In this document: one piece after another, positions 12,740-42,894 of the stretch | Numbering within the stretch: the first letter of the stretch is position 1 | How the letters are laid out: each line of letters opens with the position of its first letter | Source of the DNA: Candidatus Cloacimonadota bacterium | GTDB lineage: Bacteria; Cloacimonadota; Cloacimonadia; Cloacimonadales; TCS61 | Length of the DNA stretch: 57,587 nt | Direction of reading: 5' to 3' | NCBI GenBank assembly: GCA_021734245.1 | Contig: JAIPJH010000008.1 | Location: 1-57,587 of the forward strand | Position numbers and translations under genes: made by a program | The notes under the pieces: model-generated | What the model was told of the DNA's origin: nothing | The model's database searches: none | Seen by the model: the letters and a program-made list of their open reading frames with translations, nothing else

Positions 12740-12785
12740 GAGATTATTCCATAGAACAACGTAGTAAGAAACGTCAGAAAGACGG
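12740..12785. repeat. GTCAGAATGACG repeat family, copy 1
   Basis: About 46 bp, beginning GAGATTATTCC and ending ACGTCAGAAAGACGG, matching 42850-42894 at roughly four fifths of positions by eye. Shorter relatives lie near 24466 and 37559. Confidence 0.55.
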
Positions 12786-12810
12786 CTCAATAGATCTGTA
12801 TTTTTTTAAA

Positions 12811-12861
12811 TCTCCTTTATCCAGTTAACCAGGACTTTGGCAGCAAAGATTGCCATTAGCT
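12811..12861 (-). pseudogene. Duplicated 3' tail of the aconitase-family gene at 20231
   Basis: These 51 bp match 20236-20286 with five mismatches and no gap by my count. In the aconitase frame they read MAIFAAKVLVNWIKEI and a stop, against MAIFAAKGLVNWIKEN in the intact gene. The fragment is fused out of frame to the end of a truncated lipoprotein gene, giving that gene a foreign C-terminus. It is a recombination scar, not a functional gene. Confidence 0.8.
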
Positions 12862-13097
12862 GTCCAGGCTGACCAGTAAATCTCATCTCCCTTAGGTGAT
12901 ATAGCAATTTGGCAATGCTCTGCCCAGGTAGAATCTGAAACTATTCCGGGTGCAAATACTTCAGGAGTTAAACCGGGCGGTTTTAAACCAAAATACTGCT
13001 CTTCAACTGGAACAAAATTCTTTTCCATTTGATTGCAGCTGAATATACTTAATCCTATAAATATTGTACTTAGTATTTTTATCATACTCAACATCAT
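12825..13097 (-). pseudogene. Truncated PD40-type lipoprotein (second copy, 5' part only)
   Basis: 90-codon remnant. It has a lipoprotein signal (IFSCNQ) and then matches the N-terminal part of the intact lipoprotein at 18798-19748 (shared EVFAPGIVSDSTWAEHCQ and the following SP.GDEI.WSAWT). Homology ends after SAWT and the last residues come from the duplicated aconitase tail read in another frame. The intact copy is 316 residues, so roughly three quarters is missing. The start overlaps the permease stop as ATGA, so the ancestor was the last gene of the operon. It may still be translated but is unlikely to keep its role. Confidence 0.8.
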
Positions 13098-15448
13098 TCA
13101 CATTTTAAAGACAAAACAGGATTTCTTCTGGCTGCATTATAGGTTAGGAAACTCACAGTAACCAGAGCAATGAGAAGTGCAATTAAGCCCGACAAGGCAA
13201 AAATCCACCAACTTAGTTCTACCTTATAAGCAAAACTGTTTAACCATTTGCTCATTACATAATAGGCAATTGGGATAGCTATTACAAAGGTTCCGACTAT
13301 CAATTTTACAAAATCAAAATTTAGCAATCGAATCAGTTCTAAAATTGAAGCTCCATTAACTTTGCGGATAGCAATTTCTTTGGTTCTTCGCACCAGCATA
13401 AAGGAGGTCATTCCAAGCAAACCAAAACAAGCTAGAAGGATTGCCATAAAGGCAAACAACCCCATAAGCTGAAAGGTTTTGTTATCTTTTTGATAGCGGG
13501 ATTCTAATATTTGATCAAGGAATTCAAAGTTGATCACCTGTTCAGGATAGATGCTTTGGGTAATCTCAGTAACAGCCTTAGTAGAACCAAAGATATCCGA
13601 TGATTTAAGCTTAACAATAATATGATAAGCTTCGGAGTAATCGATTACATAAACTACCGGTTTGACTTTATTTTGTAGTGGTTCGAAGTTAATGTCATCT
13701 ATAATACCTACCACTTTTCGAGTCGAAGGTGGCCAGTTACATCGGATACTATGCCCAATAGGATTGTCTTTTAATCCAAGTAAAGAAACAGCTGCTTTAT
13801 TTAGAATAATAGCTTCATTTGTATCCGTTTTAAAATCCTCAGAAAATAAGCGACCCTGTAATGGTTTGATCCCTAAAGTTCTAAAATAATCGAAGTTTAC
13901 ATGTACATATGCAATTGCAATACCCTCTGTTTGCCCTTCGGGCAGCACTGCCCCATAATTATTCAAAGAGCCTGATGGTATGCGATTGGCAGTAGATACA
14001 TTTTCAACAAAGCTCTGCTTAATAAGAGCCTGTTTTAACGTATTATACTTTGCCTCATCACCAAAATCAAATATGGAAGTAATTACAGCTTCTTTTTCAA
14101 AACCAAGCTCCTTGTTCTGAAGAAAACTTATCTGCCTTAGCATGATTGCAGCACAGGCAATCAGAGCTATCACAATAGTAAACTGCGCACCCAATAAGAT
14201 CTTCTTCATTTTAAAGCCTGATCTTCCCTGACTCTTGGCTGATTTAATAACACTACTGGGATTATGAGAGGATAAGACAAGGGCAGGATATAAGCCGGTC
14301 AGGATTCCTAATACAATTATACTACCCAAAAAGCTTAGTATCATGCTGGGATTTAGCAAGTCAGTAAAAGATAGAATTTTACCGGAGATTTCATTAAATA
14401 TTGGCAAACTAAGCTCTACAATGATTAAGGCAATCGCGGACGAAATAAGGAACACGATCATTGACTCCACTATATATTGCTCTGCTATTTGCTTGTGGCT
14501 AGCACCAAAGCTTTTACGAATTCCCATTTCCAGAACTCGAGTTGTAGCATTGGCAATAAAGAGATTAACAAAATTAAAACATGCTATCAGCAATATCAGT
14601 AAACCAATTGCAGAAAATATCAGCACATAAGTAATACTGTTTTGTGGCTGAATATCTCCTAAAAAGTGGGAAGAATAAAGATGTATATTCTTCAGGTTTT
14701 GAAGCGTAAATTTTACAGGATCATCATCAGAATTACTAACTTCTTTCATAAGAGTTGAAATTTTAGCTTCTAAATCTGGTTTTGAAAACTGGTCATGCAT
14801 TTCAAAATAAAGCAAAAAATTCCACCAACCCCAACTATCCATCCAGTCATTACCGAACATTTTGTCCCCATCAGCAAGGGTTAAGAAAATATCAAAAGTA
14901 AAATGCGAATTTTGAGGAATGTTCTTTATAACGCCAACAACAGTATAAACGTATTCACTTTTTACTATAAACTTTTTCCCAATAGCATTTTCGTCCCCAA
15001 AATATTTTTGGGCAATTTTTTCGTTAATGACTGCTGTACCAGGTTCTTTTAATGAATTTTGAACATTACCTTCAATAGCTTCAAAGGAGAAGATATCAAA
15101 AAATTCAGCATCAGTCCAAGCTACGAGATCTTCCTTGAACTTCTGATCATTTAACTGTACAAGGATATCATCTCTGGGAAGAATTCTCGCATACTGTTTA
15201 ATTTCGGGTAGATTATCTGCCAGCAGTTTGCCTGCCCCCGGAGCTTGATAAGGATGTTCTTCCTGGCACAATCGGTAAATAGTATCTGCCTTTTCGTGAT
15301 ATCTATCATAGCTTAGTTCCTGTATTACGTATAGGAAAAGTAAAATACTTACTGCGATACCAATAGCTAAACTGGAAATACTTATCAACGAATATGCCTT
15401 GTGCTTCTTGAGGGTTTTAATGATTATTTTAAGATAATTTTTAAACAT
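13094..15448 (-). CDS. FtsX/MacB-type ABC transporter permease
   Basis: 784-residue membrane protein with two MacB-periplasmic-core plus FtsX units. The N-terminal membrane segment (about 20-45) is followed by a large periplasmic domain (50-275) and an FtsX cluster (about 280-405, with MGIRKSFGAS); a second membrane segment (about 425), periplasmic domain and FtsX cluster (about 670-775, with IAIRKVNGAS) follow. This layout is typical of macrolide/lipoprotein-type exporter permeases of the FCB group. No ABC ATPase gene is present in the window, so the partner is encoded elsewhere. It lies 44 bp downstream of the esterase-ankyrin fusion and overlaps the truncated lipoprotein, indicating one operon. 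Confidence 0.88.
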   Translation of the reverse strand: MFKNYLKIIIKTLKKHKAYSLISISSLAIGIAVSILLFLYVIQELSYDRYHEKADTIYRLCQEEHPYQAPGAGKLLADNLPEIKQYARILPRDDILVQLNDQKFKEDLVAWTDAEFFDIFSFEAIEGNVQNSLKEPGTAVINEKIAQKYFGDENAIGKKFIVKSEYVYTVVGVIKNIPQNSHFTFDIFLTLADGDKMFGNDWMDSWGWWNFLLYFEMHDQFSKPDLEAKISTLMKEVSNSDDDPVKFTLQNLKNIHLYSSHFLGDIQPQNSITYVLIFSAIGLLILLIACFNFVNLFIANATTRVLEMGIRKSFGASHKQIAEQYIVESMIVFLISSAIALIIVELSLPIFNEISGKILSFTDLLNPSMILSFLGSIIVLGILTGLYPALVLSSHNPSSVIKSAKSQGRSGFKMKKILLGAQFTIVIALIACAAIMLRQISFLQNKELGFEKEAVITSIFDFGDEAKYNTLKQALIKQSFVENVSTANRIPSGSLNNYGAVLPEGQTEGIAIAYVHVNFDYFRTLGIKPLQGRLFSEDFKTDTNEAIILNKAAVSLLGLKDNPIGHSIRCNWPPSTRKVVGIIDDINFEPLQNKVKPVVYVIDYSEAYHIIVKLKSSDIFGSTKAVTEITQSIYPEQVINFEFLDQILESRYQKDNKTFQLMGLFAFMAILLACFGLLGMTSFMLVRRTKEIAIRKVNGASILELIRLLNFDFVKLIVGTFVIAIPIAYYVMSKWLNSFAYKVELSWWIFALSGLIALLIALVTVSFLTYNAARRNPVLSLKCE

Positions 15449-15492: not shown

Positions 15493-18006
15493 TCATTTAC
15501 TTTTGATAATAATGCTTTGCATTGATTCTTCCAGAATTGTAACATCCGGCAGGCTGGCTTTCAATTTCTCTATCGTCTGTAAAACCTCATCTTCTCCATC
15601 TTTGTTAAAGCTTGAGAAATGCCCCAATATAATGTGTTTTGGCTTTAGATGCTTCTTTAGTATTTCTATTCCAGGAGCATCTTCTCCCCATAAAAAACCA
15701 CGATTAATAATTGCTAGATCAATGGTTGAATTTTTTATTCCTGATAAATCATATTCCTTCTCTCCACTCACAAGAGTTCCTTCCCAGGCGCGTCCACAGG
15801 CATCGCCACCGATAAATATATTCATTCCTTCAAGATTAAACAGGTAGCCAAGATTTTCGCTTGTTCCGTTGCCATCAGCATGTCTTAATCTGAAAACTTT
15901 TACATCTATTCCGCTGGCTTTTGTGCTAATAGATTTATATAGATCAGGCATTATTTCTTTTACCCGGCTTGTATCTGCTTTGTCTGCCAAAGCTATTTTC
16001 AATCTTTCTGATGTTTTGCTGTTGCAGATAACATTTAATTTATCACTGTTTGACATATATTCGGCAACCATCTCAGGTGAGAAATGATCACCGTGATCAT
16101 GTGTAATGAGCATAATATCCGCAGAGTGAAAGGGTTCTTCCTGTTTGTTCAATTTATTAACAATTTGTTTTGAAGGTGTTAAATATGAATTAAAACCTTG
16201 TTCAAAAAGAGCATCAACTAAAACCGTTTTATCGGCAGATGAGATCATATAACCCATATTGGCTATATAGGTAACTTTGATTTCTGCTTTTCCTTCTCCG
16301 TCAAATTTGACGACTCTTTCTTTTGATAATTTGCCGCCTTTACTTTTAAGGTAGTCTAAAATATCTTTGTGTCCCCAATCTTGCGCAATGCTAGTTGCTG
16401 TTCTGCCAGTATTATCAATTGCATTGATATCAGTATCTTCATCTATCAATAATTTTGTTAACTTTTTATTATTATGCATGATAGAATAATGCAGTGCTGT
16501 TTTACTTAAACTATCAACCACATTAATATCAGCACCTTTTTCTACTAATTTTTTGGCACTTACAAAATCACCTCCAATTACTGCATTATGCAGGAAACTT
16601 CTTGCTATTTCATCTTTGTCGTCAAAATCAGTGCATTTACTTATTAATGCTTTTGAGATATTTATTTGACCATTTGCTAAAGAAATATGCAACAATTTGT
16701 TTATCTCCTGCTTATCTTCAGGAAATTCAGCTCCTTTAGCTAAAATCAAATCTGCTATTTCTTTATTATTACTTTCTATTGCAGTTACCAGAGCAGTTTT
16801 ATCATTGTCATCAACTAGGTTTAAATCAACTCCGGCATTTATTAGATACTCACTGATTTCATTTGAATTGCTTCTCACAGCTATATGTAAAGCTGTTTCC
16901 TTCCTATCATTCTGGGCATTAATATTTGCGCCGTTTTTTACCAACTTTTTGATAAGAGATAAATCTCGATGCCTGAGAGACATATTCAAAGCATCAATTT
17001 TTGTGGCAGGATTTTGATAATTAACATCAGCATTATTTTTCAGCAATAAATCAACTATATCCATATTTTTGTAATATACTGCAAATATAAGTGGAGTGTA
17101 TCCAGAATTTGTCGAATCAACTATATTAGGATTTTGTTTAACTAGATCTTTTACTTCTTCAATATTTCCATCTCTAATTAAAGTAAATATGGTCCGTGTT
17201 TGCTGTATCTCTTCTACATCTTCAAATATAAATTCAATTCCCCTGTAGACATCAGTATATGGAACATGTCCTTCGCCTTTTAATTCTTCCATTTTCCATT
17301 TAAGACCTTTTGGGGCACTGTTTTCCAAAAGTTTTCGTAGTGAAGGCATGGTAGTCATCACAGAACTAAAATCATTTTCACCATAAACAATATATACGTT
17401 TTTATTAAGAGTCTCTATTGCCTTAAATAATTCAGTGGTTTGATTTAAGACATAGTTATTTTCATAACCCAGCATAGGACTACTTAATATATATGATGAA
17501 AACAGGTCAGGATCAGTATTTAGAATGTAGGTTGCAAGCATTCCGGTATTAGAAAACCCAACTACAATTCTCTGAGAATCTGTTTTATATTCTTTCTCTA
17601 TATAAGGAATTACTTCTTTTTTTATTGATTCAATGAATTTTTTGCCCTCAGCTTTATTGCCAGGCTCTCTGGTTACTTTAAAAGGAAAAACATCGCCTCT
17701 ACTGCCATCATCACAAATTCCGACAATAATTAGTTCGGGAATTCCATTACTACCACCCAAATCTCTGGCAGCAGAATATACACGTTCAAAAGAGTATTGA
17801 GGATAAAGTACATAAAGCACAGGATATGTTTTTGACTCATCATACTCCTCGGGTAAACTGATCATTAACTCTCTTTCATTACCATAAATTTCAGAATCAA
17901 AGGATATTCTTTTTCCTATCGATATATCCTCGTTTGTTTGAGCTTGTAATTGTGCAAAGCTAAAATAGAATAATCCTACCAATACTAATAATAGTGTTTT
18001 TTTCAT
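15493..18006 (-). CDS. Exported fusion protein: esterase, ankyrin repeats and metallo-beta-lactamase fold
   Basis: 837 residues with a signal peptide (1-22). Residues 25-265 form an alpha/beta-hydrolase of the IroE/esterase-D type: oxyanion-side VLYVLYP, nucleophile Ser152 in GFSNTG (a variant of GxSxG) and a probable His in GEGHVPY. Residues about 270-575 are ankyrin repeats (recurring TPL/TAL..A and LL..GAD(V/I)N units). Residues about 585-837 are a metallo-beta-lactamase domain of the UlaG-like type with the HxHxDH metal motif (THDHGDH, about 634), a later GGDACGR (about 733) and LGHFSS (about 793). Substrates are unknown. The gene lies between a reductase and an FtsX-type permease on the same strand. 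The three-domain combination is unusual to my knowledge. Confidence 0.85.
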   Translation of the reverse strand: MKKTLLLVLVGLFYFSFAQLQAQTNEDISIGKRISFDSEIYGNERELMISLPEEYDESKTYPVLYVLYPQYSFERVYSAARDLGGSNGIPELIIVGICDDGSRGDVFPFKVTREPGNKAEGKKFIESIKKEVIPYIEKEYKTDSQRIVVGFSNTGMLATYILNTDPDLFSSYILSSPMLGYENNYVLNQTTELFKAIETLNKNVYIVYGENDFSSVMTTMPSLRKLLENSAPKGLKWKMEELKGEGHVPYTDVYRGIEFIFEDVEEIQQTRTIFTLIRDGNIEEVKDLVKQNPNIVDSTNSGYTPLIFAVYYKNMDIVDLLLKNNADVNYQNPATKIDALNMSLRHRDLSLIKKLVKNGANINAQNDRKETALHIAVRSNSNEISEYLINAGVDLNLVDDNDKTALVTAIESNNKEIADLILAKGAEFPEDKQEINKLLHISLANGQINISKALISKCTDFDDKDEIARSFLHNAVIGGDFVSAKKLVEKGADINVVDSLSKTALHYSIMHNNKKLTKLLIDEDTDINAIDNTGRTATSIAQDWGHKDILDYLKSKGGKLSKERVVKFDGEGKAEIKVTYIANMGYMISSADKTVLVDALFEQGFNSYLTPSKQIVNKLNKQEEPFHSADIMLITHDHGDHFSPEMVAEYMSNSDKLNVICNSKTSERLKIALADKADTSRVKEIMPDLYKSISTKASGIDVKVFRLRHADGNGTSENLGYLFNLEGMNIFIGGDACGRAWEGTLVSGEKEYDLSGIKNSTIDLAIINRGFLWGEDAPGIEILKKHLKPKHIILGHFSSFNKDGEDEVLQTIEKLKASLPDVTILEESMQSIIIKSK

Positions 18007-18063: not shown

Positions 18064-18795
18064 CTAATCCTCTTTATTGTAGATCACCGGCATTTGACCT
18101 TGCCACTTCTTCCATAAATCTGGTTCCATCAGAAGTCTGGCCATGAAGTTACCCACATTTATTCTACTTGTTCTACCTGGATTGAACAGAGCGCTCCTTA
18201 TGGGTGAACGGTATATCTGATAATCTGTTATGACATCTTCATTTATTAAAGTGTCTGGTCGAATAGCAACCCATTCAATGAAATTATTTTTCTGTCCGAT
18301 TTTCAACCTTAAATAATCTGCTGCAGCTTCATTATCACTGTGGGGAGGAAGAAACAGATGAATCAAACCTAACACGATTTTTTGCACCAGGGACACAGGC
18401 TCAGCAAGATCTTTGTTCCGCACAGCAGTAGTATTCATCAAAGCAAATTTAACTGGTTTTTGGGGAGAACCGGTTTTGATAGCTTCACATAATAATCTAA
18501 CCGAGTCGGTCACCAGTTTTCTGGGATTGCCGAACATTCCCTTAAAAGTAAGATTATGTCCCAGGCAGGAAGCAACGGAGTCACAATCAACCAGCAATTT
18601 CTGCAACTTATCCCTGCTAAGCTCAGAGATAGAAGCTATTATAATAGTTATATTATCATTGTTTTGCCAATCATCAGGTATATTAGCTGAATTACGGACA
18701 ATAGCTTTAACCTTTTGTCCCATATTCAACAACTGCTCTACTAACTGTTTTCCTGTAGCACCACTGGCACCTACCACTAATGTTTTCATGCTCAC
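18064..18795 (-). CDS. NAD(P)-binding SDR-like reductase (NmrA/YwnB type)
   Basis: 243-residue Rossmann protein with the dinucleotide motif GASGATG at residues 9-15 and the atypical short-chain-dehydrogenase layout, lacking a clear YxxxK. VASCLGHN follows beta-4. Such proteins act as flavin or quinone reductases, epimerases or redox sensors; the substrate cannot be read. It starts 2 bp after the upstream lipoprotein stop, so it is cotranscribed with it. Cytoplasmic, since no signal peptide is seen. Confidence 0.8.
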   Translation of the reverse strand: MSMKTLVVGASGATGKQLVEQLLNMGQKVKAIVRNSANIPDDWQNNDNITIIIASISELSRDKLQKLLVDCDSVASCLGHNLTFKGMFGNPRKLVTDSVRLLCEAIKTGSPQKPVKFALMNTTAVRNKDLAEPVSLVQKIVLGLIHLFLPPHSDNEAAADYLRLKIGQKNNFIEWVAIRPDTLINEDVITDYQIYRSPIRSALFNPGRTSRINVGNFMARLLMEPDLWKKWQGQMPVIYNKED

Positions 18796-18797
18796 AC

Positions 18798-19748
18798 TTA
18801 TATTCCTTCAATATTTTCAAGATTTTCAGATTTTCTTAACTTTCTAATTATATCTGTTGATACCCAGAAGAAATCCTGTCCGGGAGTGTGACGCATAAAG
18901 AACAAATACTTTCCGTCGGGAGAAACTGTAGGAAATCGTTCTCTTAATTCTGTATTAATCTCTGGTCCCATATTGATTGGGTATCCCCAGTCATCTTCCT
19001 CAGTTTTAAAACTCAAATATAAATCTACATCACCAAAGCCGTTTTCATGGATTGCTGCAAAAATTACATATTTTTCTTTTGGAGACATATAGAAATTCCA
19101 CACTGGGCGAAAATCTTTATGTATGATAATGCTATCAATTAAAGTAAAACTGTTATTATAATAACGAAATTTTGAAATTTTACCGAAAAGGTTCTTATAA
19201 ACAAATCCTTTTTTCGTGAATATCGGGCTGTAATCCTGATCTTCTGAATTGTAAGGTTTTCCCGCATCTATTGGTTCATCGCTCCACTTTCCATCAGTCT
19301 TTTCTACATAGTAGGTATTCATGTCAGATGAAACCCAGGGACTCTTTACTTGATAGAAAAATAGTCTTTTTCCATCTGGAGAAAAAACCGGTCCGCCATT
19401 TAATCCATGCAGGTTATTTTTGATGAATTCGGCGATTTTGGGTTTGGTCCATGATCCATTTTCAAATTTTGAATAAAATATTTGTTCTGTGTTCTTTGAA
19501 CCATCTTCGGATTTATACTCTACTGTCCATGCCGACCAGAAGATCTCATCACCTTGTGGAGAAACGGCAAGCTGGCAATGTTCTGCCCAGGTGGAATCAG
19601 AAACAATTCCAGGTGCAAATACTTCAGGAATTTCTCCTGGGGGAGTTAGTCCAAAATATGCATCTTTTGTTTCTAAGAAATTCTCTTTAGTTTGTTTACA
19701 GCTACAAAAGAATAAGCCAATTAATACTATAAATAGTGTTCTTTTCAT
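18798..19748 (-). CDS. Lipoprotein with PD40/TolB-like beta-propeller repeats
   Basis: 316 residues. A lipoprotein signal with FCSC lipobox (Cys17) is followed by repeated propeller units of the TolB/PD40 type: ISPxGDEIxWSAW, FSPDGKRLFFYQ, MSPKEKYVIFAA and VSPDGKYLFFMR. It is probably anchored in the envelope and binds a ligand or partner protein; no enzyme motif is visible. It is the first gene of the operon continuing to the FtsX permease. A truncated homologue of its 5' part lies at the far end of the same operon (12825-13097). A clear ribosome site (GGAG) precedes the start. Confidence 0.85.
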   Translation of the reverse strand: MKRTLFIVLIGLFFCSCKQTKENFLETKDAYFGLTPPGEIPEVFAPGIVSDSTWAEHCQLAVSPQGDEIFWSAWTVEYKSEDGSKNTEQIFYSKFENGSWTKPKIAEFIKNNLHGLNGGPVFSPDGKRLFFYQVKSPWVSSDMNTYYVEKTDGKWSDEPIDAGKPYNSEDQDYSPIFTKKGFVYKNLFGKISKFRYYNNSFTLIDSIIIHKDFRPVWNFYMSPKEKYVIFAAIHENGFGDVDLYLSFKTEEDDWGYPINMGPEINTELRERFPTVSPDGKYLFFMRHTPGQDFFWVSTDIIRKLRKSENLENIEGI

Positions 19749-20230
19749 TTCTTGTTTCTCCTTAATAATTTTATTTTTCTAAATCAATTTTCGGAGAAAC
19801 AAACATGTTGGTACACTTGACTTAATTTGAAAGAAGCATTTTGTATGCCAAATGCGTTTTTGTTATATTTTTCAGCGAGTTAGGACTTTTCAAGGTGTAA
19901 CTAACAACAAATTGTTCTTCACAATCGATCAGTTCAGTGTTCGAATGTGAACACAGAAGTAGGAAATTTTAAAGTAAATTGAAAGATTATAACTTTCCCA
20001 GAATATGATATAAAACTTACTTAAAGCAGATAAAAAAAATCCCACACATTTCTGCATGGGAACATATTTGTTATAGCTCACGGATGATCGCGGATAACAC
20101 AGATCGTAATAAAAGATATTTCGATTAACACTCCTGTAACACTGCAATGAATACTATTGCGAATTTCAGAATATTCAAGTCTTTTTATTATCCGTGTTTT
20201 CAGTGTGCATCTGTGAGCTTCTTTCAGCTA
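19749..20230. other. Gene-free spacer between aconitase and lipoprotein operon
   Basis: No supportable gene in 482 bp. The right part (20075-20221) contains a long inverted repeat. The left part probably holds the lipoprotein-operon promoter, which I could not assign to a clear motif. Confidence 0.55.
20075..20221. repeat. Imperfect inverted repeat with about 38-bp arms
   Basis: The left arm (20075-20112) begins AGCTCACGGATG and includes AACAC and TAATAAAA. The right arm (20184-20221) includes TTATTATCCGTGTTTT and ends CATCTGTGAGCT. They are reverse complements with scattered mismatches, separated by about 70 bp. It resembles dispersed CGGATAACAC-type repeats known from other genomes. Confidence 0.55.
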
Positions 20231-22006
20231 TCAATTCTCCTTTATCCAGTTAACCAGACCTTTGGCAGCGAAGATCGCCATTAACTCTTTTGGTAGTGGA
20301 GCAAATTTGAACTCTTTATCGTTGATCTTCACAAAACCATTTTCCAAACTCACATCCACTTTATCGCCTTGTTTGTAGGCATCCACAACTTCCGGCAATA
20401 CAATGATGGGCAGTCCCTGATTTACAGAAGAACGATAGAAGATACGATTCACAGATTTCACAATGACTGCTTTCACGCCGGCATGAGCCAGACCAACAGC
20501 AGGATGTTCACGTGAACTTCCGCAACCGAAATTTTCACCTGCGATCACAACATCACCTGGCTGTACATTTTTGGGGAAGTTGGCATCAAAATCTACAAAG
20601 AGATGCGGCATGATTGCTTCCGGATCGGATGAAAGAACCTGGTAGGTAAGGTTTCCGGCAAACATCTGATCTGTATTCAAATTATCCACATCGGCGTAAT
20701 TCCAGGTAGCTTCTGCTCTTCTATCGTCATCCGGCTGGATATCAACAGTTGAGCTTTGAGCTTTTGGATAGGGATATTTATCTGTAAAAGTTTTACCACG
20801 AGGATCGGTGATCTCTCCGGCGATTGCACTGTATGCCACACAGGCAGGAGAAGCCAGGAAAATCTGAGCTTCTTTGTTTCCCATGCGGCCTTTAAAATTA
20901 CGATTGGCTGTGGAAATAACAGTGTAACCATCAGCCGGAATTCCCTGACCAGTTCCCAGACACGGTCCGCAGGAAACAGCCAGCACACTGGCACCTGCCT
21001 TCATGAGTTTGGTGATCAAACCTTCCTCGATCATCTGCAGATAGATTTCTTTGGAAGCAGGAATAACAAGAAGTTGGAAATCATCAGCTATTTTCTTTCC
21101 ATCCAGAATTTCAGCAGCAATGTGAATATCTTCCAACCTGCCGTTCGTACAGGTTCCAATCAATCCTTGATTGAGTTTTCTTCCCTGCACTTCGGAAACA
21201 GCTTTCACGTTATCCACATGATGTGGAGCTGCTACTAATGGGAATATTTCGTTCAGATTGATCTCAATTTCTCTCTGGTATTTTGCATCTTTATCAGACC
21301 AGATGCCGTTTGTAATTTTTTCCCCAATAAATTCTTCCAGAACTTCATCAGGTGGAAAAACTGCATTTTTGGCTCCCATTTCCGAAGCCAGGTTCGTTAG
21401 AGTCATTCTTTCAGAAATGGAAAGTGTTTTCACACCTTCACCGTGAAATTCAATGCTCATGTAATTAGCTCCGGCAGAACCGATCATGCCGATGATCCAG
21501 AGCGAAATATCTTTGGCATAAACTCCTGGCTGGAGTTTGCCATTCAAAGTGATTTTAAGCGATTCCGGAACTCGGAACCAGGTTTCACCACGTTTCCAGA
21601 TCCCGGCAGATTCCGTTCTATCGATTCCAGCAGCCAGTGCATTGAAAGCTCCTGCAGTACAGGTGTGGCTGTCACTTCCCACGATGATCATACCCGGCTT
21701 GGCATGATAACTCATCACCTGATGGCAGATGCCATCGCCAACGTCATGGAATTTCTTGATGCCCTGATCTTTTACAAAATCACGAATTGTCTGATACTGA
21801 TTAGCTAATTTGGCATTTGTTGGCGGAGCGTTATGGTCCAATACAACCAGAAGCTGATCGGGATCGGCTACTTTTTCGCCGCCCATTTTTTTGAATGTGT
21901 TCTTGATGCTGGCAGTGTTATCGTGGGTGAGAACGATGTTCGGTTTGCGAAACACGATCGCACCAGTCTCTGCGCCCAGTATTTTTTCTACAAAAGTTTT
22001 TCCCAT
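20231..22006 (-). CDS. Aconitase-family hydratase, fused large and small subunits (copy 1)
   Basis: Predicted [4Fe-4S] dehydratase/isomerase of the aconitase, homoaconitase and isopropylmalate isomerase superfamily, about 591 residues. LeuC-like part (1-about 420): VLDHNAPP, SDSHTCTAGAF, and cluster cysteines in GTCTNGR and CGPCLG. LeuD-like part (about 440-591): DNLNTDQMF and GENFGCGSSREH. I chose the second of two adjacent ATGs (22006) because the AGGAGG site is then 5 nt away. The substrate (citrate, homocitrate or other) is not determined by the sequence. It is the last gene of the metabolic operon. A 51-bp copy of its 3' end sits at 12811. Confidence 0.88.
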   Translation of the reverse strand: MGKTFVEKILGAETGAIVFRKPNIVLTHDNTASIKNTFKKMGGEKVADPDQLLVVLDHNAPPTNAKLANQYQTIRDFVKDQGIKKFHDVGDGICHQVMSYHAKPGMIIVGSDSHTCTAGAFNALAAGIDRTESAGIWKRGETWFRVPESLKITLNGKLQPGVYAKDISLWIIGMIGSAGANYMSIEFHGEGVKTLSISERMTLTNLASEMGAKNAVFPPDEVLEEFIGEKITNGIWSDKDAKYQREIEINLNEIFPLVAAPHHVDNVKAVSEVQGRKLNQGLIGTCTNGRLEDIHIAAEILDGKKIADDFQLLVIPASKEIYLQMIEEGLITKLMKAGASVLAVSCGPCLGTGQGIPADGYTVISTANRNFKGRMGNKEAQIFLASPACVAYSAIAGEITDPRGKTFTDKYPYPKAQSSTVDIQPDDDRRAEATWNYADVDNLNTDQMFAGNLTYQVLSSDPEAIMPHLFVDFDANFPKNVQPGDVVIAGENFGCGSSREHPAVGLAHAGVKAVIVKSVNRIFYRSSVNQGLPIIVLPEVVDAYKQGDKVDVSLENGFVKINDKEFKFAPLPKELMAIFAAKGLVNWIKEN

Positions 22007-42849: not shown

Positions 42850-42894
42850 GAGATTCTTCCCAAGAGTAACGTTCAAGAAACGTCAGAATGACGG
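42850..42894. repeat. GTCAGAATGACG repeat family, copy 2
   Basis: Begins GAGATTCTTCC, ends AACGTCAGAATGACGG when read with its arms; matches 12740-12785 with scattered changes and a one-base gap. Confidence 0.55.

What the first reader, a model, noticed from the sequence alone, without database searches (positions are those of the whole stretch)
15493..18006. Esterase, ankyrin and metallo-beta-lactamase domains in one exported protein
Two hydrolase folds, each with recognisable catalytic residues (Ser152 and a THDHGDH metal site), are joined by about 300 residues of ankyrin repeats behind a signal peptide. The operon adds a propeller lipoprotein, a reductase and an FtsX-type permease. Two enzymes tethered by a protein-binding scaffold suggests sequential breakdown of one substrate or a toxin/defence role.
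Basis: partly seen in the sequence, partly recalled or inferred. Interest (0 to 1): 0.6.

Follow-up and report, generated by a model that had tools for sequence, protein, structure and literature searches.

The report
Exported esterase–ankyrin–metallohydrolase fusion protein
This is one continuous bacterial gene for an exported protein carrying two enzyme domains on either side of nine ankyrin repeats; it is real and rare, but it is built from known families, and what it acts on is unknown.

Summary
Window 15493-18006 (-) is one open frame of 837 aa: signal peptide, alpha/beta-hydrolase esterase (PF00756, IroE-like), nine ankyrin repeats, and an intact metallo-beta-lactamase-fold domain. It is not a frameshift artefact: a full-length relative (80% identity) lies in a Candidatus Delongbacteria MAG (GH31), and all three domains are under purifying selection (dN/dS 0.17-0.26). 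Among 125 genomes of its own phylum only the window's genome has the triple fusion; 395 sampled Bacteroidota show none. The parts exist separately: exported standalone MBL (Bacteroidota; G031), ANK-MBL (G029 and a second, cut copy in GH31), and esterase-TPR (G105). The likeliest history is that an exported MBL gained ankyrins and then an N-terminal esterase; the ankyrins go with the MBL and are not a linker invented for two enzymes. Relatives sit in a recurring set of exported propellers (PD40, kelch), an NmrA-like NAD(P)-binding protein and, in some, FtsX permeases. In the same phylum ankyrins are also fused to the PD40 module (G012, G112). Best reading: an accessory cell-envelope double hydrolase whose ankyrins dock a partner. 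No evidence for a toxin or defence role was found; the substrate is unknown. New domain arrangement of known families.

The parts
17941..18006 (-). Signal peptide, residues 1-22
   Evidence: Sequence: K-K, hydrophobic core, LQA cleavage motif; no lipobox cysteine. Judged by inspection, no signal-peptide program was run.
17218..17925 (-). Esterase domain, residues 28-263, alpha/beta-hydrolase, IroE-like; Ser152 (17551-17553), His247 (17266-17268), candidate acid Asp212
   Evidence: PF00756; phmmer 3gff E 5.7e-17; structural match Z 19.9 to 3gff, 22.1 to 4w9r
16327..17214 (-). Nine ankyrin repeats, residues 265-560
   Evidence: Pfam Ank families; nine helix pairs in model
15505..16287 (-). Metallo-beta-lactamase-fold hydrolase domain, residues 574-834; ligands H636 H638 D640 H641 H709 D735 H796
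   Evidence: PF12706/PF13483; ligand columns invariant or nearly so in 17 relatives; AF2 pLDDT 87.5; Foldseek UlaG/UPF0173/NAPE-PLD
16084..16104 (-). THDHGDH first metal motif, residues 635-641
18798..19748 (-). PD40 beta-propeller, probable lipoprotein, first gene of the run
   Evidence: PF07676; 73-76% identical relatives in G029 and G105
18064..18795 (-). NAD(P)H-binding (NmrA-like) protein, second gene
   Evidence: PF13460/PF05368; close relatives (44-47% identity) only in G105, G006, G031 of 125 genomes
13094..15448 (-). MacB_PCD/FtsX duplicated permease, fourth gene; no ATPase gene beside it
   Evidence: PF12704 + PF02687, ADOP-like below the NCBIfam cut-off
12858..13076 (-). Truncated second PD40 gene directly after the permease
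   Evidence: 64% identity to the first PD40 over 73 aa; 73% DNA identity to 19523-19743
20040..20061 (-). Terminator-like hairpin with T run upstream of the run of genes (pattern match only)

Best explanation
An exported (periplasmic or surface) double hydrolase made by stepwise gene fusion. Shown: one frame, three domains, conserved catalytic residues, purifying selection, existence of the parts as separate proteins. Inferred: an exported MBL hydrolase gained an N-terminal ankyrin solenoid, and an IroE-like esterase with its signal peptide was later joined in front. Inferred mechanism: the ankyrin solenoid docks the protein to a partner of the same gene set (best candidates the PD40 propeller lipoprotein or the permease's large periplasmic domains), holding a serine esterase and a metal-dependent hydrolase at one site in the envelope, where they cleave ester/lactone or phosphodiester bonds of a small molecule or envelope component. 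Whether both enzymes act on one substrate is unknown.
For: Full-length relative at 80% identity with all catalytic residues kept; dN/dS 0.17 esterase, 0.26 ankyrin, 0.21 MBL. Separate parts: MBL alone next to PD40, kelch and NmrA-like genes (G031), ANK-MBL (G029; GH31), esterase-TPR between FtsX permeases (G105). Structures: esterase Z about 20 to IroE-like enzymes, MBL closest to UlaG/UPF0173/NAPE-PLD. Ankyrins also fused to the PD40 module in G012 and to PD40 plus another alpha/beta hydrolase in G112. N-terminal signal sequences on the window protein and its separate relatives (by inspection).
Against: The serine elbow is GFSNTG rather than GxSxG, so esterase activity is not certain. No substrate, partner or localisation is shown. 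The gene neighbourhood differs between relatives, which weakens any fixed-partner model. The GH31 relative sits on a 7.2 kb contig of a MAG and could be mis-binned, so the number of independent genomes is small.
Confidence: 0.55

Rival explanations
1. Sequential breakdown of one substrate: the esterase and the MBL catalyse two consecutive steps (for example ester cleavage, then lactone or phosphodiester cleavage), and fusion channels the intermediate.
For: Both active sites conserved under purifying selection; both folds hydrolyse ester/lactone-type bonds in characterised relatives (IroE-like family, UlaG; reactions from general knowledge).
Against: ANK-MBL occurs without an esterase in G029, and the closest esterase comes with TPRs and no MBL; nine ankyrins separate the sites; no shared substrate is known.
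Confidence: 0.25
2. Toxin or inter-microbial/defence effector: ankyrins bind a target protein of another cell and the hydrolases damage it.
For: Ankyrins are common in secreted effectors; G031's gene set is followed by the start of a SIR2-like gene; the gene set is patchy, not found in two same-genus genomes.
Against: No immunity gene or toxin delivery domain seen, no defence-family match beyond the ankyrins; dN/dS of the ankyrins is low (0.26), not the fast change expected of an arms race.
Confidence: 0.08
3. The fusion is functionally neutral: domains joined by chance in a shuffling gene set, with only one enzyme still useful.
For: The region shows rearrangement scars (truncated PD40 joined to a copy of the aconitase tail) and apparently chimeric FG-GAP/PD40 genes in GH31.
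Against: Purifying selection is similar across all three domains between two genomes and all catalytic residues are kept.
Confidence: 0.12

Closest known systems
IroE-like serine hydrolases (PF00756; Shewanella 3gff, Bacillus cereus BES 2qm0, Capnocytophaga 4w9r)
   Same: Fold, Ser and His positions, length of the domain
   Different: Elbow GFSNTG instead of GHSFGG; followed by ankyrins and an MBL instead of TPRs or nothing
UlaG / UPF0173 / NAPE-PLD branch of the MBL fold (PF12706, PF13483)
   Same: HxHxDH, second His, Asp, third His; fold
   Different: About 20% identity; exported; fused to ankyrins; NCBIfam UPF0173 model (PRK00685) far under cut-off (18.5 vs 144 bits)
Exported standalone MBL hydrolases of Bacteroidota (L039-L049)
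   Same: Same subfamily (E down to 1.9e-58), signal peptide; one (G448) sits next to an NAD(P)-binding gene and a class C-type serine hydrolase
   Different: No ankyrins, no esterase
Other exported ANK-MBL proteins of about 695 aa in this phylum (L010, L016)
   Same: Ankyrins followed by an MBL-type domain (read from the translations)
   Different: No esterase; the MBL is a different branch that the MBL-only query did not reach

Membership tests
PF00756 esterase / IroE-like | Profile match above the curated cut-off | tested here: met
   60.5 bits vs 22
PF00756 esterase / IroE-like | Alpha/beta-hydrolase fold like solved members | tested here: met
   Z 19.9 and rmsd 3.5 over 237 residues to 3gff
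PF00756 esterase / IroE-like | Strict GxSxG elbow | tested here: not met
   GFSNTG here, GFSNSG in GH31, GQSNTG in G105; so it is filed under the fold and profile only, activity left open
PF00756 esterase / IroE-like | Ser-acid-His triad | tested here: inconclusive
   Ser152 aligned in all five; His247 aligned with GH31 and G105, not cleanly with the others; acid Asp212 only a candidate
Metallo-beta-lactamase fold | HxHxDH, His, Asp, His ligands | tested here: met
   H636 H638 D640 H641 H709 D735 H796; first motif, Asp and last His invariant, H709 nearly invariant in 17 relatives
UPF0173 (NCBIfam PRK00685) | Curated score cut-off | tested here: not met
   18.5 bits vs 144
UlaG lactonase | L-ascorbate-6-phosphate lactonase activity | not testable with these tools
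   Fold similarity only
Class B beta-lactamase | PF00753-type match and beta-lactam hydrolysis | tested here: inconclusive
   The window domain has no PF00753 match at E 0.001; activity not testable
Dot/Icm ankyrin effectors (AnkX, AnkY and others) | Equivalog cut-off | tested here: not met
   96 bits vs 600 for the best; only ankyrins match
Anti-phage defence systems (PADLOC) | Match outside generic ankyrins | tested here: not met
   Only PDC-M72A and Ankyrin models, both on the repeats

The most novel reading that the evidence does not exclude
A so far undescribed envelope system of interchangeable exported modules (PD40 and kelch propellers, MBL, esterase, class C serine hydrolase) in which ankyrin solenoids are repeatedly fused to the N-terminal side of a module, and in which FtsX/MacB-type permeases relay force or docking to the exported enzymes, as FtsEX does for cell-wall hydrolases.
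Probability: 0.1. Interest if true: 0.65.

Novelty: new variant of a known kind. Interest (0 to 1): 0.35.

Why it matters
If both enzymes are active, this would be a natural example of two unrelated hydrolases mounted on one ankyrin solenoid outside the cytoplasm, in an uncultured bacterial lineage, with the evolutionary steps (MBL, ANK-MBL, Est-ANK-MBL) still visible in living relatives. It would also point to a gene set worth naming: propellers, hydrolases and permeases that travel and fuse together.

Tried and rejected
Frameshift or mis-assembly joining separate genes: rejected, full-length relative at 80% identity. Common, already characterised architecture: rejected within what could be searched (125 genomes of the phylum; 395 Bacteroidota for the MBL and for the esterase; plasmids, no place covering 80% of the query; viral contigs with a two-sequence query, none). 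The two long esterase frames looked at in Bacteroidota (L107, L111) are esterase-TPR proteins, not ankyrin fusions. Toxin/defence assignment: no support. Literature search for the triple architecture: no paper. The full-length AF2 model was poor over the MBL (few sequences), so the MBL was folded alone; relative placement of the two active sites could not be read (pTM 0.49). Rfam: nothing in the window. The PD40-FtsX association is only suggestive: about 4% of G000 lies within 4 kb of the MacB_PCD/FtsX matches, and all three of its PD40 matches do, but two of them are in the same cluster.

Full report
What is there. The minus-strand frame 15493-18006 encodes 837 aa. Pfam places an esterase (PF00756) at 38-179, ankyrin repeats from about 272 to 555 and an MBL domain (PF12706/PF13483) at 577-736, all above the curated cut-offs. 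The N-terminus reads as an ordinary signal peptide.

Is it real? A search of one genome per species found a full-length relative, L021, in Candidatus Delongbacteria isolate GH31, 80% identical over 836 residues. S152, D212, H247 and all MBL ligands are identical. Nei-Gojobori dN/dS is 0.17 (esterase), 0.26 (ankyrins) and 0.21 (MBL), so each domain is kept by selection. A frameshift or assembly join is excluded. Caution: GH31 is a MAG and the gene lies on a 7.2 kb contig. For one core gene, isocitrate dehydrogenase, the window is 90% identical to a same-genus genome (G002), 84% to G029 and only 70% to GH31, so the fusion is closer than that core gene would suggest. Horizontal movement or mis-binning are both possible. 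In the same-genus genomes G001 (74% complete) and G002 (93%) neither the MBL nor the PD40 gene was found.

How common? In 125 genomes of the phylum the MBL domain has relatives only in G029 and G031, and the esterase in 11 other genomes, none of them among those with an MBL match. In 395 Bacteroidota, 11 have strong MBL relatives (E below 1e-20), with frames of about 220 to 385 aa, so too short for the fusion; the esterase family is widespread (226 of 395), and the longest listed frame is 665 aa, an esterase-TPR protein. Plasmids and viral contigs gave no full-length relative. The architecture is therefore rare in what could be searched; metagenome contigs could not be scanned.

Where the parts come from. 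G031 has an operon MBL (278 aa), PD40, kelch, NmrA-like protein with gaps of tens of bases. G029 has ANK-MBL (593 aa) with a class C serine hydrolase, two PD40, kelch and FG-GAP genes downstream; GH31 has the same ANK-MBL, cut by a contig end, at 84% identity. G105 has an esterase-TPR with the same unusual SNTG elbow between FtsX permeases, and on the other strand NmrA-like, kelch and two PD40 genes. The window's gene run PD40, NmrA-like, Est-ANK-MBL, FtsX permease is a mixture of these. The simplest order is MBL, then ANK-MBL, then Est-ANK-MBL; this is an inference from distribution and identity (ANK-MBL of G029 aligns to the window protein from residue 264 on), not from a tree.

A wider pattern. 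Ankyrins are fused N-terminally to the PD40 module in G012, between two FtsX permeases, and to PD40 plus a further alpha/beta hydrolase (GGMSAGG) in G112. So ankyrins have joined this set of exported modules in three different architectures. In G000 all three PD40 matches lie within 4 kb of an FtsX-type permease, where about 4% of the genome does; two share a cluster, so this is suggestive only.

Structure. The full model is fair for esterase and ankyrins and poor for the MBL. The esterase part matches 4w9r, 3gff and 2qm0 at Z 20-22. The MBL alone folds well (pLDDT 87.5) and matches UlaG, UPF0173 (including a cAMP-bound one), NAPE-PLD and others at similar scores, so the reaction cannot be told from the fold.

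Mechanism. Shown: export signal by inspection, conserved metal site, conserved Ser and His. Inferred: the ankyrins dock a partner of the gene set and hold two hydrolases at one envelope site. FtsX-family proteins are known to relay force to periplasmic hydrolases (FtsEX with EnvC or PcsB: PMC7668044, PMC6355983; MacB: PMC5985334; abstracts seen); that the permease here does so is speculation, since no ATPase gene is beside it.

Verdict. A real, rare domain arrangement of known families; ordinary parts, unusual assembly; function open.

Noticed in passing
window 12808-13076: A truncated PD40 gene (73% DNA identity to 19523-19743) joined at about 12861 to a copy of the aconitase gene's end (54 bp, 89% identity to 20233-20286): a duplication/rearrangement scar.
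   Followed up: partly
L095 3-2651: Open-ended frame of 882 aa with ankyrins, PD40 propeller and an alpha/beta hydrolase in one protein (G112), a second kind of three-module fusion.
   Followed up: partly
L096 1246-3234: ANK-PD40 fusion of 662 aa between two FtsX permeases (G012).
   Followed up: partly
L021 1655-3991 and 6709-7212: FG-GAP repeat genes carrying short stretches that read like the start of the PD40 protein (FVSDSTWAE, ETEPGDMPVLF): apparently chimeric genes on both sides of the triple fusion in GH31.
   Followed up: no
L079 4169-4417: Start of a SIR2-like gene (LVGSGFSKNA, read by eye) after the MBL-PD40-kelch-NmrA operon of G031.
   Followed up: no
window 12740-12785 and 42850-42894: Short 46 bp repeat at 80% identity between two distant places.
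   Followed up: no
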